This document shows positions 738-5,308 of a stretch of DNA of 5,316 bases, one piece after another. The position numbers and the translations under genes are program-made. Source of the DNA: Gemmatimonadota bacterium. GTDB taxonomy: Bacteria > Gemmatimonadota > Gemmatimonadetes > Longimicrobiales > UBA6960. Within the stretch, counting starts at the first letter, position 1. Each line of letters starts with the position of its first letter. The notes below the pieces were generated by a model that had not been told where the DNA came from, ran no database searches, and worked only from the letters and a program-made list of their open reading frames with translations. The stretch lies in contig JADFLD010000178.1 in assembly GCA_022564535.1 (NCBI GenBank), positions 1-5,316 on the forward strand, written 5' to 3'.

Positions 738-3671
738 TTATTCTTGGCTCTCCGCTTCGAGCCCCAGCGCCTCGAGGATCACGGCCTCCTGCTGCTTGGC
801 ATGGATCGATGCTTTCCCCTCGGCGGGACTCGCGCGTTCGGGCCGCGCGGCATGCGAGAGCGGCACATTGCGAGGCACGACGCCGCGCAGTCGAGGGCCG
901 ACGAAGGTGAGTCCGCCCATGTTGCGCGGCTCCTCCTGAGCCCACACGACCTCCCGCAGATTCGGGTAGCTCTCGATCAGTTCCTTCAGCGCCTCGACCG
1001 GGAAGGGGTAGAGGAGCTCGAGGCGGCCCACGGCCGCCGACGCCGCTTCGCCGCGCCGCGGGTGCTCCTGGATGTCGTAGTAGAGCTTGCCGGAGCAAAG
1101 GACCATCCGCGTGATGGCGGAGGCATCCTCAACGGTGGGGTCGGGCAGCACGTGCTGGAAGCTGCCCTCCATGAATTCGGCGATCGTCGAAGTCGCTTTG
1201 GGATGCCGGAGCAGGCTCTTGGGCGTCATCACGATCATCGGACGCTCCGGCCGCCGCAGCGCCTGACGCCGAAGCATGTGGAAATGCTGGGCAGGCGTCG
1301 TCGGGTACGTGACCCTCATGTTGTCTTCCGCGCAAAGCTGAAGGAAACGCTCCAGCCTCGCGCTCGAATGCTCAGGACCCTGTCCCTCGTAGCCGTGAGG
1401 GAGCAGCAGGGTGAGTCTCGAGCACTGCCCCCACTTCGTGAACCCCGACGACAAGAACTGATCGATCATGACTTGCGCGACGTTCACGAAGTCGCCGAAC
1501 TGAGCCTCCCACAGCACTGCGTCGGTGTCGGCAGCCACCGAGTACCCGTACTCGAAACCGATGACCGCCGTCTCCGTGAGCGGCGAGTTGTAGACCTCGA
1601 AGCGCGCGTCTCCGATCTGGCTGAGGGGCACGAACTCGTCGCCGTTCTCCACGTCGTGCAGGACCAGGTGACGGTGGCTGAAGGTCCCACGCTGCACGTC
1701 TTGACCCGTGAGCCGTACCGGGATGCCTTCGATGAGGAGGCTGCCGTATGCGAGCGTTTCGGCGTGCCCCCAATCGACGGTGCGACTCGGCGATAAGACG
1801 CTCGCCCGCTTAGTGAGTTGTCTCCAAAGCTTGGGGTGCGGGGAGAACCCGTCCGGCACCGCGAGCGTGGCGCTGTTGATCTTCTCGAGCGTCTCGAGAG
1901 ACACTCCGGTCGTCTCCGGCACGATCGGAATCTCGCGCTCCTCGTCCGGCGCGTCGTCTTCGACCGGTTCGTACTCCCGGACCCGATCCTGGATCTCGCG
2001 GAGATGTTGCATGATCTCGTCACGCAAGTAGGCGACGTCCTCGTCGCTTACAACGCCATCCTCGATCAGGCGGTTGGAGTAGATCTCCTGAATGGTCGGA
2101 TGGGCGGCGATCGTCTTGGACTGCACCGGCTGCGTGTAGGCTGCCTCGTCGCCCTCGTTGTGGCCGTGACGTCGGTAGCCGACCAAGTCGATCACGAAGT
2201 CGTCGTGAAACTCCAACCGGAACGCCATCGCCAGACGTACCGCCCCGAGGCATGCCTCCGGGTCGTCGGCGTTTACGTGGACGATTGGTATGCCGTACCC
2301 TTTCGCCAGGTCGCTGGAGTAGAACGTCGACCGGCTGTCGCGAGGATCGGTCGTGAAACCGACCTGATTGTTCACGATCAAGTGGATCGTGCCGCCCACG
2401 TGATAGCCCTCCAGGCGAGCCATGTTCAGCGTTTCGGCGACGACGCCCTCGGCTGCGAACGCCGCGTCCCCGTGCATGAGCACGGGCACCACGGCGTCGT
2501 AGTTCGGACTGGCGTCCTTCGAGGGATTCTCGAGTTGTTTCGCGCGCGCCATCCCGATCACGACAGGGTTCACGAACTCCAGGTGACTCGGATTGGGCGC
2601 AAGAGTGACACACACGTCACCCACGCCCTCAATGGTCCGCATACCGCTGGCGCCGTGATGGTATTTAACGTCCCCAGTACCGGCGACGTGGAGCCTGCCT
2701 GTCTTCGCGGACGGACCCTCGAACTCGGCGAGCAATTCCTCGTACGAAATTCCCAGCGTATGCGTCAGTACGTTGAGTCGGCCTCGGTGGGCCATGCCGA
2801 GGACGACGTCTCTCGCTCCGGCCTTCGCCGCCGCCTCGATAATCAGATCGAGCATCGGGACCAGCATGTCGGTCCCCTCGATAGAGAAGCGTTTCTGCCC
2901 GAGATAGGTGCGGTGGAGGAACTGCTCCAGACCCTCCACCTGGCTGATTCTGCGCAGGAGCGCTCGCCGTTCCTTGGCATCGAGGTCGGGCAGGTGTGTG
3001 CGTCCTTCCACCTCCTTCCAGAGCCAGTCGACCTTCACATGGTCGTCCAGGTGCTCGAACTCGTAGCCGATGGAGCCGGCATAAATGCGGCTGAGGTCCG
3101 CGAGCGCGTCGGCGACCGATCGGTCATCGCTCTCGGCCAGAATGAGCGACGCCGGAAGCTCCCCGAGCTCTTCGAACGAGGTACCGTAGAACGCGGGGGA
3201 GAGCTGAGGATGACCGGGAGGATCGCTACCGAGCGGGTCGATTCTGGCGAGCTGGTGTCCGTGATCGCGGAACGCCTGCACGAGCGCCGTGGCGCGCGAC
3301 ACAGCCGGCAGGAGTCTCAGGAGAGGATGCTCGGGTCCCGACGCGGGTGCCGGCGCCGTTGTGGGCGCGGCCTGGGCGTCGGGCATCGGTGCGTGTGTGG
3401 GCGACGCCGCGGACGTGGGCGTCTTTGTCTGTGTCTGTGGAGCGGGGTCGGCGGTCGGAGTACCGGGTGAGGCCGCTGCAGGGGGGGCGACGGTACGAGG
3501 CGTATTCAGCTGATCCGGAACGATCAGGCCTTCCGCGATCGCGAGGGCCGCTCCGTTGTCGAAGAGCTTCCGCCATTCGGCAGGAACAGCTTCCGGATTC
3601 CTGGCGAATTCCTCGAACATCGCCTGTGCGTAGGCGGCGTTCTGACTGTCGAAAAGGGTGTCGTCCGTCAC
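738..3671 (-). CDS. sucA: 2-oxoglutarate dehydrogenase E1 component
   Basis: This thiamine diphosphate enzyme decarboxylates 2-oxoglutarate and passes the succinyl group to the lipoyl domain of E2 in the TCA cycle. From the proposed GTG start it has 977 residues, usual for E1o. An N-terminal helical segment (FDSQNAAYAQAMFEEF, about 7-22) is followed by an Ala/Pro/Thr-rich linker (about 57-113). The core contains GMAHRGRLNV (292-301), GDVKYH (333-338), HGDAAF (400-405) and NNQVGF (434-439) for cofactor binding, then RRHGHNEGDE (500-509). The transketolase-like pyrimidine domain has GTFSHRH (662-668) and GYEGQGPEHSSARLE (760-774), and the C-terminal domain has QEEPRNMG (912-919). No E2 catalytic domain is fused, unlike actinobacterial KGD, and no E2 or E3 gene is adjacent. 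The open frame continues upstream to an ATG at 3788, but those 39 residues look unlike the family and reach almost to the divergent gene. The GTG at 3671, giving TDDTLFDSQN, is preferred although its ribosome binding site is weak. Confidence 0.96.
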   Translation of the reverse strand: MTDDTLFDSQNAAYAQAMFEEFARNPEAVPAEWRKLFDNGAALAIAEGLIVPDQLNTPRTVAPPAAASPGTPTADPAPQTQTKTPTSAASPTHAPMPDAQAAPTTAPAPASGPEHPLLRLLPAVSRATALVQAFRDHGHQLARIDPLGSDPPGHPQLSPAFYGTSFEELGELPASLILAESDDRSVADALADLSRIYAGSIGYEFEHLDDHVKVDWLWKEVEGRTHLPDLDAKERRALLRRISQVEGLEQFLHRTYLGQKRFSIEGTDMLVPMLDLIIEAAAKAGARDVVLGMAHRGRLNVLTHTLGISYEELLAEFEGPSAKTGRLHVAGTGDVKYHHGASGMRTIEGVGDVCVTLAPNPSHLEFVNPVVIGMARAKQLENPSKDASPNYDAVVPVLMHGDAAFAAEGVVAETLNMARLEGYHVGGTIHLIVNNQVGFTTDPRDSRSTFYSSDLAKGYGIPIVHVNADDPEACLGAVRLAMAFRLEFHDDFVIDLVGYRRHGHNEGDEAAYTQPVQSKTIAAHPTIQEIYSNRLIEDGVVSDEDVAYLRDEIMQHLREIQDRVREYEPVEDDAPDEEREIPIVPETTGVSLETLEKINSATLAVPDGFSPHPKLWRQLTKRASVLSPSRTVDWGHAETLAYGSLLIEGIPVRLTGQDVQRGTFSHRHLVLHDVENGDEFVPLSQIGDARFEVYNSPLTETAVIGFEYGYSVAADTDAVLWEAQFGDFVNVAQVMIDQFLSSGFTKWGQCSRLTLLLPHGYEGQGPEHSSARLERFLQLCAEDNMRVTYPTTPAQHFHMLRRQALRRPERPMIVMTPKSLLRHPKATSTIAEFMEGSFQHVLPDPTVEDASAITRMVLCSGKLYYDIQEHPRRGEAASAAVGRLELLYPFPVEALKELIESYPNLREVVWAQEEPRNMGGLTFVGPRLRGVVPRNVPLSHAARPERASPAEGKASIHAKQQEAVILEALGLEAESQE

Positions 3672-3793
3672 GGTCCGATGGCCCCAGCGCTTGTGGAGGC
3701 GAGTGCCGCCCCCAGGTGACGGATAAGCTATCGCATTCTTCCCGCAGGCAGGAGTTTGCGTCGGTCGCACACCATCGGGTAGCATCACCCGCC
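3672..3793. promoter_or_regulatory. Divergent intergenic region between sucA and pgeF, probable promoters
   Basis: Both flanking genes are transcribed away from this 122-base stretch, so it should hold a promoter for each. It contains the most AT-rich stretch between the two genes, around 3721-3740. On the plus strand, TTGCGT (3756-3761) and TAGCAT (3780-3785) with 18 bases between them are a loose sigma-70-like pair. Their predicted transcript would begin almost at the pgeF GTG. No convincing -35 box is seen for sucA, although GATAGCTTATC (complement of 3722-3732) could contribute a -10. There is no clear operator. The role rests on gene orientation; the exact boxes are guesses. Confidence 0.4.
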
Positions 3794-4594
3794 GTGACCC
3801 ATCCTCGTTCTCGCCTTCCCGACCCCGTGAGGGTCCGCGAAACCCCAGCCGAATGGACCCGGGCGCTTGTCCATCGTGGGTGGGCCGATGCTTTCCCCTG
3901 GCTCATCCAAGGGACGACGCTTCGCGGGTCCTCGGACGCTCCCTTCGACCTCGGGCTCTTCAGCTCGGGTGCCCCCGAGGTCACGGTGCGGATCCACTGG
4001 GAGGAAGTACGCCGCACGCTGGGCGTGGCCCGCGTCGTTCACGCTCGTCAACTGCACGGAAGCGACGTGCGGATGCACGCTCCCCACGGGTGCGAGGGCG
4101 GTGACGGCCAGGTCCCGTGCCTGGTCGACCCCTGCGACGGACATGCGACCAAGGAGCCCGATGTTCTGCTTGCCGTGACCACGGCGGATTGCGTTCCGGT
4201 CTTCGTCGTCGACCCCGGGCGGCGGTCGGTCGCTGCATTGCACGCCGGCTGGAGGGGTGCGGCGGCCGGTGTGCTCGAGCGTGGTCTGACCGTGATGGAG
4301 TCAGCGTTCGGTTCGGTCGTTGGCGACGTTCATGTACACTTCGGGCCGGCGATTTGTGGGGACTGCTATGAGGTGGGACCCGAGGTGTTTCAGGCCCTCG
4401 ATCAGCCGGTCCCGGACCGTCCGGCGCCCATCGACTTGCGAAGGGTCCTTGCGGCGCGCGCGACCCTTGTCGGTGTCGGGGTCGACCGGATCAGCCTTTC
4501 CGCCCACTGCACGCGCTGCACGGGCAGCGGGCTGTTTTCCCACCGCGGGGGCGATGCGGGTCGGCAGGTCAGCTACCTGGGGATTCGGGGGTGA
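3794..4594 (+). CDS. pgeF: PgeF/YfiH family purine nucleoside phosphorylase (laccase domain; peptidoglycan editing factor)
   Basis: This family (once called multicopper polyphenol oxidase or laccase-domain proteins) phosphorolyses adenosine and inosine, deaminates adenosine, and in E. coli removes wrongly incorporated L-Ser from UDP-MurNAc peptides. From the GTG at 3794 the protein has 266 residues, normal for the family. The metal-site residues are all present: H88 in RQLHGSDV, C133 in TTADCVPV and H150 in ALHAGWRG. The signatures FGPAICGDCYEVGPEV (183-198) and CTRCTGSGLFSHRGG (239-253), then GRQVSYLGI, also match. The frame is open far upstream without homology. GTG 3794 is the first plausible start; GTG 3827 is an alternative that keeps all motifs, and neither has a strong ribosome binding site. 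No signal peptide is visible, so it is probably cytoplasmic. It is the first gene of a plus-strand unit and its TGA overlaps the next start by 4 bases (GTGA). The preferred biological substrate here is not shown by sequence. Confidence 0.93.
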   Translation: MTHPRSRLPDPVRVRETPAEWTRALVHRGWADAFPWLIQGTTLRGSSDAPFDLGLFSSGAPEVTVRIHWEEVRRTLGVARVVHARQLHGSDVRMHAPHGCEGGDGQVPCLVDPCDGHATKEPDVLLAVTTADCVPVFVVDPGRRSVAALHAGWRGAAAGVLERGLTVMESAFGSVVGDVHVHFGPAICGDCYEVGPEVFQALDQPVPDRPAPIDLRRVLAARATLVGVGVDRISLSAHCTRCTGSGLFSHRGGDAGRQVSYLGIRG

Positions 4595-4851
4595 CCGGCC
4601 CTCGGTCCGTTCCCGATCATCGGGCCGGCCTCTGTGCCGACTGCCTTCACCACCGGCTCACGGGCAACCGACGGGGCTCGATGTTCTATCTTTGCGAGAG
4701 ATCGAAGGAGGATCCGAGATTCCGGCGGTATCCTCCCTTGCCTGTGATCCGATGCCCCGGATACGAACGTGGCGCGCCCGATCCATGGTCCGAATACGCA
4801 GACCCACCCTCGGACGACCCTTCATCAGGAGATACAGACGACGATGAGTGA
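4591..4851 (+). CDS. Small Cys4 hypothetical protein (probable zinc-binding)
   Basis: The 86-residue product starts at a GTG that overlaps the pgeF stop by 4 bases, indicating translational coupling. I cannot assign a function. Four cysteines (C15, C18, C35, C55) are arranged C-x2-C-x16-C-x19-C, in the contexts LCADC, FYLCERS and VIRCPGYE. Between them is SKEDPRFRRYPPLPV, which looks like a conserved core; small proteins with this CxxC - YLC - DPRF - RCxGYE pattern seem familiar from other bacterial genomes, but that is from memory. A structural zinc site or a redox role are both possible. The C-terminal 20 or so residues are acidic and probably disordered (many D, S and P, ending DTDDDE). 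There is no membrane segment or signal peptide. Its end overlaps the following OsmC gene by 8 bases. The overlaps at both ends and the codon use, like that of the neighbours, support a real gene. Confidence 0.8.
   Translation: MTGPRSVPDHRAGLCADCLHHRLTGNRRGSMFYLCERSKEDPRFRRYPPLPVIRCPGYERGAPDPWSEYADPPSDDPSSGDTDDDE
4827..4832 (+). promoter_or_regulatory. Ribosome binding site of the OsmC-family gene
   Basis: AGGAGA lies 11 bases upstream of the ATG at 4844, inside the end of the Cys4 gene. It is the clearest Shine-Dalgarno sequence in the window. It selects ATG 4844 over the in-frame ATG at 4769, which would read antisensibly through the conserved Cys4 gene. Confidence 0.75.
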
Positions 4852-5308
4852 GCCGCTCTACATCACGCGATCGACGATCACGAAGGTCGATGGCCTACAC
4901 CGCCGAGGGGCCCTCGAGGACGGCACGCCGCTCGAGTTCGGGGTCCACGGGCCGATCAAGGCCCACTATGGTCTCGACTCCCAGCCGGATCTCCCTCTGC
5001 CGGTCGACTACCTCGTCGCCGCCGCGGCGGCCTGACTACTCGGGACTCTCAATGGCGCACTGGAAGTGCGCGGGATCCCGATGGCGAACGACGCCATCAG
5101 CTGCACCGCGGAAGGCACGAACGAGATCGTGGATCGGATCATTCTGCTGACGAAGATCCACGTGCACTACACGTTGCGGCTACCCCCAGAGGCCCCGGAG
5201 GACAAGGTCTCTCGGGCTTTGGAGACGCACGTGAGCAAGTGTCCGACGGCTCAGTCGATCAAGGACTCGGTGGAGATTACGTGGTCGGTGGAGTTTGTCG
5301 AGAGCTAG
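4844..5308 (+). CDS. OsmC-family selenoprotein (TGA at codon 64 read as selenocysteine)
   Basis: OsmC/Ohr-family proteins reduce organic hydroperoxides through a conserved pair of redox cysteines in a small domain-swapped dimer. Read through TGA 5033-5035, the gene gives 154 residues ending at TAG 5306-5308. The fold is recognisable: N-terminal strands with LEFGVHGPIKAHYGL (30-44), helix DYLVAAAAA-U64-LLGTLNGALEVRGI, strands with KIHVHYTLRL (104-113), and HVSKCPTAQSIKDSVEITW (129-147). U64 occupies the position of the N-terminal catalytic cysteine at the start of the central helix; the partner C133 is present, 69 residues later. C87 is an additional cysteine. The frame is unbroken on both sides and family similarity continues across the TGA, so neither half is a full domain. 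A SECIS-like hairpin follows at once. The start has a good AGGAGA and overlaps the Cys4 gene by 8 bases (ATGAGTGA). Alternatives are a recent nonsense mutation or a sequencing error of a Cys codon (TGC or TGT to TGA). A reassigned code is unlikely because TGA ends two neighbouring genes. Confidence 0.85.
5033..5035 (+). other. In-frame TGA, probable selenocysteine codon (Sec64)
   Basis: TGA is preceded by five alanine codons and followed by codons for LLGTLNGALEVRGI. OsmC relatives have alanine or glycine residues and then cysteine at this point. A TGA at this one residue, with the remaining frame intact, is the usual signature of a bacterial selenoprotein. Confidence 0.85.
5042..5079 (+). 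promoter_or_regulatory. Putative bacterial SECIS element
   Basis: Read by eye, the mRNA just after the TGA folds into one long stem-loop. The upper stem is seven perfect pairs (5055-5061 GCGCACT with 5065-5071 AGTGCGC) closed by a GGA loop (5062-5064). Below an AATG bulge (5051-5054), TCTC 5047-5050 pairs with GGGA 5072-5075 (one G-U). Below a single bulged C (5046), GGGA 5042-5045 pairs with TCCC 5076-5079. Fifteen pairs result. The apical loop begins 26 bases after the TGA and its first two bases are G. Bacterial SECIS elements lie in the coding region right after the UGA, with a short loop carrying a G in its first two positions about 16-37 bases downstream. They bind SelB, which delivers Sec-tRNA. 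No folding energy was calculated. Confidence 0.75.

What the first reader, a model, noticed from the sequence alone, without database searches (positions are those of the whole stretch)
4844..5308. An OsmC-family selenoprotein hidden by an in-frame TGA
Seen: one continuous frame of 155 codons interrupted only by TGA at codon 64, with OsmC-like sequence before and after it. The TGA falls precisely at the N-terminal redox cysteine of the family while the C-terminal one (C133) is kept. Known: replacement of a catalytic Cys by Sec at UGA is the hallmark of selenoproteins, and OsmC-like selenoproteins were reported from marine metagenome surveys. Inference: this is a Sec-dependent peroxide or hydroperoxide reductase, with Sec raising nucleophilicity at the peroxidatic position.
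Basis: partly seen in the sequence, partly recalled or inferred. Interest (0 to 1): 0.92.

Follow-up and report, generated by a model that had tools for sequence, protein, structure and literature searches.

The report
Selenocysteine OsmC protein in Gemmatimonadota
A bacterial stress-protein gene that databases cut in half at an apparent stop codon is in all likelihood read through with selenocysteine, the rare 21st amino acid, placed where its relatives carry their reactive cysteine, and the same arrangement recurs in many genomes of one phylum.

Summary
Confirmed. Window 4844-5308 (+) is one OsmC-family frame of 154 residues with a single in-frame TGA at codon 64. All 47 relatives fetched from genome contigs carry TGA at that codon (48 of 48 with the window). 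The site aligns with Cys in full-length homologues and in solved OsmC 1ukk. A hairpin fitting the bacterial SECIS rules follows the UGA. Six of its pairs form in 91 of 91 main-group genes; one pair switched between A-U and G-C at least 6-7 times, and a rare Ala codon is held in place. SelB, tRNA-Sec, SelA and SelD each pass their cut-off in 42 of 45 relatives' genomes. The window's own genome is not held. OsmC-like selenoproteins are known since 2005 with motif UxxT; this subfamily reads U-L-L-G-T and fails that family's model (32.8 against 95 bits). Peroxidase activity is inferred: Cys133 is kept, but the catalytic Glu of Ohr is not at its position. A real, apparently uncatalogued, Sec-dominated OsmC subfamily; a new variant of a known kind.

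The parts
4844..5308 (+). Sec-OsmC gene, 154 residues read through the UGA; ATG start, TAG stop
   Evidence: start supported by M1 nearly invariant in alignment A1
5033..5035 (+). in-frame UGA, codon 64, read as selenocysteine
   Evidence: TGA in 48/48 genes; aligns with Cys
5040..5081 (+). bacterial SECIS-type stem-loop inside the coding sequence
   Evidence: 5033-5083 folds at -23.5 kcal/mol, z -4.27, 0 of 200 shuffles as low; the shorter 5036-5077 gives -12.4, z -1.36, 25 of 200
5055..5071 (+). apical stem 5055-5061/5065-5071 with loop GGA 5062-5064, 26 nt after the UGA
   Evidence: six inner pairs kept in 91/91 main genes, compensatory changes
5006..5008 (+). codon of D55, nine residues before U64
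   Evidence: D in 91/91 main genes; V at -10 in 91/91 (the main group was picked by the motif PVD, so V and D here are partly by choice; D55 is also invariant in the 23 rows of A1)
5240..5242 (+). codon of C133, presumed resolving Cys
   Evidence: invariant in A1; CP motif in 119/119 genes
4901..4903 (+). codon of R20, candidate catalytic Arg (by position only)
   Evidence: R20 invariant in the 23 rows of A1; rough scan 111 of 119
4827..4831 (+). possible Shine-Dalgarno AGGAG, 12 nt before the ATG
   Evidence: sequence inspection
4591..4851 (+). small Cys-containing ORF (86 aa) overlapping the osmC start by 8 nt; translational coupling presumed
   Evidence: homologue beside osmC in 22 of 60 loci
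3794..4594 (+). pgeF-like gene (PF02578), upstream in the presumed operon
   Evidence: TIGR00726 123.6 bits, below its cut-off 141.15

Best explanation
The gene encodes a full-length OsmC-fold selenoprotein. SelB carrying Sec-tRNA binds the hairpin just after the UGA and decodes UGA64 as selenocysteine instead of stopping (mechanism established for bacteria; here inferred from cis-element, site and machinery). Sec64 sits at the N-terminal reactive-cysteine position of OsmC proteins. By analogy with Ohr/OsmC it would attack a (lipid) hydroperoxide as a selenolate, be oxidised, form a Se-S bond with Cys133 and be reduced by a cellular dithiol. Shown here: OsmC homology and predicted fold, fixed UGA, SECIS-type RNA under selection, Sec machinery in relatives' genomes. 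Inferred: Sec insertion in this very organism, peroxidase activity, substrate, reductant. The confidence below is for the selenoprotein claim; for the peroxidase function I give about 0.6.
For: UGA at the same codon in 48/48 genes. Every match printed in the survey of 395 genomes of the phylum of G021 has exactly one internal stop, TGA (117 of 395 genomes match, rows printed down to E 7.4e-33). UGA pairs with Cys in full-length homologues and in 1ukk. The hairpin meets each published bSECIS rule (rules from a figure legend; fold): 3-nt loop, 7-bp apical stem, G first in the loop, 26 nt from the UGA, MFE below -7.5. All six tested pairs form in 91/91 main genes; pair 26-34 is A-U in 78, G-C in 12, G-U in 1, at least 6-7 changes on the tree. 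Ala+8 is GCA in 78 of 90 against 118 of 1587 other Ala codons of the same genes; third bases of codons +7, +9, +11 and +12 are nearly frozen. SelB, tRNA-Sec, SelA and SelD each over cut-off in 42/45 relatives' genomes; 40 of those 42 SelD genes also have an in-frame TGA. In the 395 genomes SelB is present in 112 of 115 with a Sec-OsmC match (88 of the 90 with the main gene) and in 169 of 280 without. Model pLDDT 94.7; best solved matches are OsmC/Ohr proteins.
Against: No genome is held for the window, so its own sel genes are not shown. No protein-level evidence of Sec. Three of 115 genomes with the gene lack a SelB hit (G186, G235, G154), perhaps from incomplete assemblies. The folding energy is not always exceptional: the window's shorter 42-nt stretch has z -1.36; L116 0.19, L125 -0.75, L113 -1.93. 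Rfam lists nothing in the window at E up to 1. In 35 of 91 main genes an ATG follows the UGA directly. The Ohr catalytic Glu at -10 is Val in 91/91 genes, with Asp at -9, so hydroperoxide reduction is not secured.
Confidence: 0.93

Rival explanations
1. UGA is a true stop. The gene is split, and the downstream piece of about 90 residues (as annotated in databases) is made separately by re-initiation.
For: Databases hold the pieces as separate ORFs: of the 120 homologues listed only 10 are full length; many are 84-103 aa C-terminal pieces, some named OsmC family protein; P0015 is the N-terminal piece. An ATG follows the UGA at once in 4 of 48 genes and in 35 of the 91 main genes of the wider set.
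Against: In 44 of 48 and 53 of 91 genes the next start codon is a GTG eleven codons on, inside the predicted helix 53-75 and the conserved hairpin; in the 28 PAR genes none follows at once. TAA or TAG never replaces TGA (48/48; 91/91). Cys replaces the codon in homologues, and synonymous sites after the UGA are constrained.
Confidence: 0.03
2. UGA64 is read as another residue (Trp by reassignment, or near-cognate read-through), without selenium.
For: One database homologue has Trp at the site (P0003) and one has Gly (P0002).
Against: TGA ends other genes in the window (pgeF-like at 4592-4594, small ORF at 4849-4851) and ends 12 of 48 of these very osmC genes. Of 25 full-length database homologues that I took from the listed rows, 23 have Cys at the site. 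Sec machinery and a SECIS-type hairpin are present.
Confidence: 0.02
3. It is a selenoprotein, but not a hydroperoxide reductase: a thiol/selenol protein of another function, as may hold for YhfA-type OsmC relatives.
For: The Glu of the Ohr triad is not at -10 (V 91/91); identity to solved OsmC/Ohr chains is only about 10-22%. A paper states that the Ohr/OsmC family includes proteins such as YhfA whose activity is unknown (passage of PMC5962072).
Against: U64 and C133 match the two redox residues; D55 at -9 and R20 are invariant in A1 and could substitute.
Confidence: 0.35

Closest known systems
OsmC-like selenoprotein (Sargasso Sea 2005; NCBIfam NF041052 OsmC_like_Se)
   Same: OsmC family; Sec at the aligned position: the U of member P0233 pairs with U64
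   Different: Published motif UxxT and P0233 reads U-L-L-T; this one reads U-L-L-G-T. 19% identity over 93 columns; the window protein scores 32.8 bits, cut-off 95, P0233 185.9. That the Sargasso sequences belong to NF041052 is inferred from the motif, not tested
Ohr (organic hydroperoxide resistance) proteins
   Same: Fold (e.g. 6eb4, 1n2f); reactive residue and a second Cys towards the C terminus
   Different: Sec instead of Cys; catalytic Glu (ten before the reactive Cys in XfOhr) replaced by Val, Asp at -9
OsmC of E. coli and T. thermophilus (1nye, 1ukk)
   Same: Fold; the Cys of 1ukk aligns with U64
   Different: Sec; PVDY here against PEEL in 1ukk before the active site; TIGR03562 gave no hit at E 0.001 for the window protein
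Second, more distant Sec-OsmC group (PAR) in the phylum of G021 and in that of G029
   Same: One TGA at the same site; SelB in 25 of 26 matching genomes of G029's phylum
   Different: Mostly TTLDY or ATLDH before the site; another branch of the tree. In 19 of 19 such genes from G029's phylum (L206-L224) the six-pair stem does not form at this position

Membership tests
Bacterial selenoprotein | in-frame UGA aligned with Cys of homologues | tested here: met
Bacterial selenoprotein | SECIS stem-loop just after UGA (loop 3-9 nt, stem 4-16 bp, G in first two loop bases, 16-37 nt spacing, MFE at most -7.5) | tested here: met
   rules from a figure legend; window fold; pairing kept in 91/91
Bacterial selenoprotein | selA, selB, selC, selD in the source genome | tested here: inconclusive
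   own genome not held; each over cut-off in 42/45 genomes of relatives
Bacterial selenoprotein | selenium in the protein | not testable with these tools
   needs 75Se labelling or mass spectrometry
OsmC family (PF02566) | score over the Pfam cut-off; OsmC fold | tested here: met
NF041052 OsmC_like_Se (known OsmC selenoprotein) | score over the 95-bit cut-off | tested here: not met
   32.8 bits; a true member in G029 scores 185.9
Published OsmC-like selenoprotein | UxxT motif | tested here: not met
   U-L-L-G-T here; UxxT in papers (passages)
Ohr hydroperoxide reductase | catalytic Glu ten residues before the reactive Cys | tested here: not met
   V in 91/91, D at -9 in 91/91; Glu51 and Cys61 of XfOhr
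Ohr hydroperoxide reductase | second (resolving) Cys | tested here: met
   C133 invariant in A1; CP motif in 119/119 genes
Ohr hydroperoxide reductase | catalytic Arg near the reactive residue | tested here: inconclusive
   R20 invariant in A1; no coordinates were available to measure its place
Ohr hydroperoxide reductase | lipoamide-dependent hydroperoxide reduction | not testable with these tools
   bench assay needed

The most novel reading that the evidence does not exclude
Selenocysteine is the ancestral and usual state of a whole OsmC branch (main and PAR groups, probably in two or more phyla). Cys, Trp and Gly versions arose later by loss of Sec. Its active site (Sec64, D55 at -9, R20, C133) defines an OsmC enzyme type distinct from Ohr, OsmC and the UxxT selenoprotein, possibly reduced by lipoyl-bearing complexes, as the recurring neighbourhood with 2-oxoglutarate dehydrogenase E1 hints.
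Probability: 0.3. Interest if true: 0.65.

Novelty: new variant of a known kind. Interest (0 to 1): 0.5.

Why it matters
Selenoprotein genes are easily cut in two by annotation, and this family is a clear case: of 120 listed homologues of the read-through protein only 10 are full length. A Sec enzyme found with UGA in every printed match of a phylum-wide survey suggests that selenium matters for the redox chemistry of these bacteria. The Cys forms found make two clades nested among Sec forms, so the family suits direct tests of what Sec buys over Cys at one fixed site. It also gives annotation pipelines a further model to add.

Tried and rejected
Rfam scan of the window, E up to 1: nothing. 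Sequencing error or pseudogene: rejected by 48/48 TGA. Split gene and Trp recoding: see rivals. Membership in NF041052: tested, not met. PDB sequence search with A1 found only 1ukk at E 0.01. The fourth fold (L116) was aimed at the wrong bases and is ignored; the right L116 stretch was folded.

Papers: selenoprotein + OsmC + Gemmatimonad gave none. OsmC-like + selenoprotein + selenocysteine gave 5, of which four were looked at by passages and PMC7435645 only in the listing. Gemmatimonadetes + selenocysteine gave 14, Gemmatimonadota + selenoprotein 6, OsmC + selenocysteine + hydroperoxide 3, judged by listing. A five-term search, at least four terms, gave 7; of these PMC12013277, PMC8318568 and PMC5029168 were searched and show no OsmC, PMC9312934 lists the UxxT protein, three were seen in the listing only. 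That this subfamily is not in print rests on these searches; subscription papers, supplements and preprints were not searched.

Rows dropped and limits: the motif script looked only for genes with a stop at the site, so its 91/91 tells which stop is used, not how often a sense codon stands there; that question rests. It found a Sec-OsmC in 148 of 193 sequences (119 distinct genes: 91 main, 28 PAR). The 45 misses are L048-L082 (fetched for selB or tRNA-Sec), the fragment L044, and nine OsmC loci (L133, L175, L176, L178, L180, L181, L187, L188, L189), which one search then read: all have TGA, and L175 lacks the stem. Of the PAR genes of the phylum of G021, L113, L117, L173 and L175 lack the stem at this position; L113 folds another hairpin with loop GGA. 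MAIN or PAR is by the motif PVD; five PAR rows (L158, L159, L162, L163, L164) fall inside the main clade on the tree. L205 and rows identical over the compared stretch were left out of the tree. The 25 genomes with only weaker OsmC matches include some whose match was not printed, so their TGA was not seen. L193 was not found by the script and was translated.

tRNA-Sec: 42/45 is over Rfam's cut-off, but one of these (G035, 47.8 bits) is no better than other tRNA matches near 47-49 bits; 41/45 score 55 bits or more; 5 of 14 control genomes also pass the cut-off.

Full report
Observation. The frame 4844-5308 reads 154 residues with one internal TGA at codon 64 (5033-5035) and ends at TAG. Pfam OsmC covers residues 50-147 at 54.1 bits, cut-off 27.5. 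The ATG is preceded by AGGAG and overlaps the end of a small ORF by 8 nt.

Conservation. A scan of the species-representative genome contigs gave 47 loci in 45 genomes. Titles are Gemmatimonadetes, Gemmatimonadota, Gemmatimonadales or Longimicrobiales, but for two loci of one bin titled Deltaproteobacteria and one titled Bacterium HR33; identity of the best segment is 50-89%. The codon is TGA in 48 of 48 genes including the window. In 44 of 48 the next start codon is a GTG eleven codons downstream; in 4 an ATG follows the UGA at once. In the wider set of 91 main genes the latter number is 35, and 53 have the GTG. In a survey of 395 genomes of the phylum of G021 (L021, titled Longimicrobiales), 117 match the alignment; every printed match has exactly one internal stop, TGA (matches weaker than E 7.4e-33 were not printed, and two genomes matched only at about 1e-5).

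Site. U64 aligns with Cys in full-length homologues and with the Cys of T. thermophilus OsmC 1ukk. C133 is invariant in A1, and a CP motif is present in 119 of 119 genes. On a quick tree of 171 rows, 23 Cys proteins form two clades (97% and 99% SH-aLRT) among Sec genes; one Trp and one Gly homologue are single tips; four changes of state in all. The 25 database rows are full-length ones that I took from two listings capped at 120 rows each. The direction from Sec to Cys is read from the position of the PAR group and a midpoint root, with 86-90% support on the joining branches, so it is likely, not proven. Half-length relatives of the Cys group carry names of Candidatus Eisenbacteria; their UGA was not checked.

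SECIS. The 51 nt from the UGA fold at -23.5 kcal/mol (z -4.27, 0 of 200 shuffles as low): a lower stem, then a 7-bp apical stem and a GGA loop 26 nt from the UGA. A shorter stretch of 42 nt folds at -12.4 (z -1.36, 25 of 200 as low). The element fits the bSECIS rules in the figure legend seen (PMC13188914). Six apical pairs form in 91 of 91 main genes; pair 26-34 is A-U in 78, G-C in 12 and G-U in 1. The codons +8 and +11 change together: GCA-GTG 78, GCG-GCG 11, GTG-GCA 1, GCG-GTG 1. The tree needs at least 6 changes of this pair, 7 when the residues coded by the stem are masked. Codons +7, +9, +11 and +12 are almost frozen at third positions, and Ala+8 uses GCA in 78 of 90 genes against 118 of 1587 other Ala codons of the same genes. 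The codon counts ignore kinship between sequences. Folding z-scores of three other genes are unremarkable to moderate (0.19, -0.75, -1.93), so the case rests on pairing and codon constraint more than on energy.

Machinery. The window's genome is not held. In 45 genomes of relatives, SelB, tRNA-Sec, SelA and SelD are each over cut-off in 42; each genome has at least two of the four. With the strict SelB threshold only E. coli and M. jannaschii rang among 14 controls. The tRNA-Sec cut-off is less specific: 5 of 14 controls pass it. Forty of 42 SelD genes over cut-off carry an in-frame TGA themselves; one of the other two is a fragment. In the 395-genome survey SelB is present in 112 of 115 genomes with a Sec-OsmC match (90 with the main gene, 25 with weaker matches only) and in 169 of 280 without (lists typed). 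The closest relative found, L001 (G001), has all four components.

Relation to the known. OsmC-like selenoproteins were reported from the Sargasso Sea (3 sequences, UxxT; passages of PMC1088965) and GOS (5, UxxT; passage of PMC2398784), and stand in reviews of 2022 and 2026 as UxxT, one OsmC entry each (passages). A true NF041052 member in one of 15 relative genomes searched reads U-L-L-T and scores 185.9 bits. The window protein scores 32.8, below 95, and shares 19% with it over 93 columns. So this is a separate OsmC subfamily with Sec at the same place. A further group, PAR, also with UGA, occurs in the phylum of G021. In the phylum of G029, 26 of 297 genomes match at E 1e-15, all rows with one TGA. 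G029 itself holds main-type genes; the 19 others read in sequence are PAR-like; SelB is present in 25 of the 26.

Neighbourhood. Of 60 loci examined, 22 have the small ORF beside osmC, 20 of these also pgeF, and 15 the 2-oxoglutarate dehydrogenase E1 gene nearby in the opposite direction (several loci are cut by contig ends). A link to lipoyl chemistry is a guess.

Verdict. It extends a known kind with an apparently uncatalogued, Sec-dominated subfamily.

Noticed in passing
L114, L115, L116, L118-L122 and others: A second OsmC paralogue (PAR) with a UGA at the same site, in many cases in the same genome as the main gene.
   Followed up: partly
L206-L224 (phylum of G029): PAR-like OsmC genes with UGA in which the six-pair stem does not form at the usual position (19 of 19); L207 folds a GGCC stem instead. 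SelB present in 25 of 26 matching genomes of that phylum.
   Followed up: partly
L113, L117, L173, L175: PAR genes without the standard hairpin; L113 can fold an alternative with a GGA loop.
   Followed up: partly
window 4591-4851 (+): Small 86-aa Cys-containing ORF without a Pfam or NCBIfam match at E 0.001, between pgeF and osmC, conserved in 22 of 60 loci.
   Followed up: partly
SelD genes of 40 of 45 relative genomes: selD itself has an in-frame TGA, so Sec-SelD is usual here.
   Followed up: no
P0002 and P0003: Full-length homologues with Gly and Trp at the Sec site, single tips on the tree; loss of Sec or sequence errors.
   Followed up: no
L029, L031 (G029): A bin titled Deltaproteobacteria holds two main-type genes identical in protein and close to Gemmatimonadota ones; mixed bin or transfer.
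   Followed up: no
window 738-3788 (-): 2-oxoglutarate dehydrogenase E1 gene, divergent from the pgeF-small ORF-osmC side; near osmC in 15 of 60 loci.
   Followed up: partly
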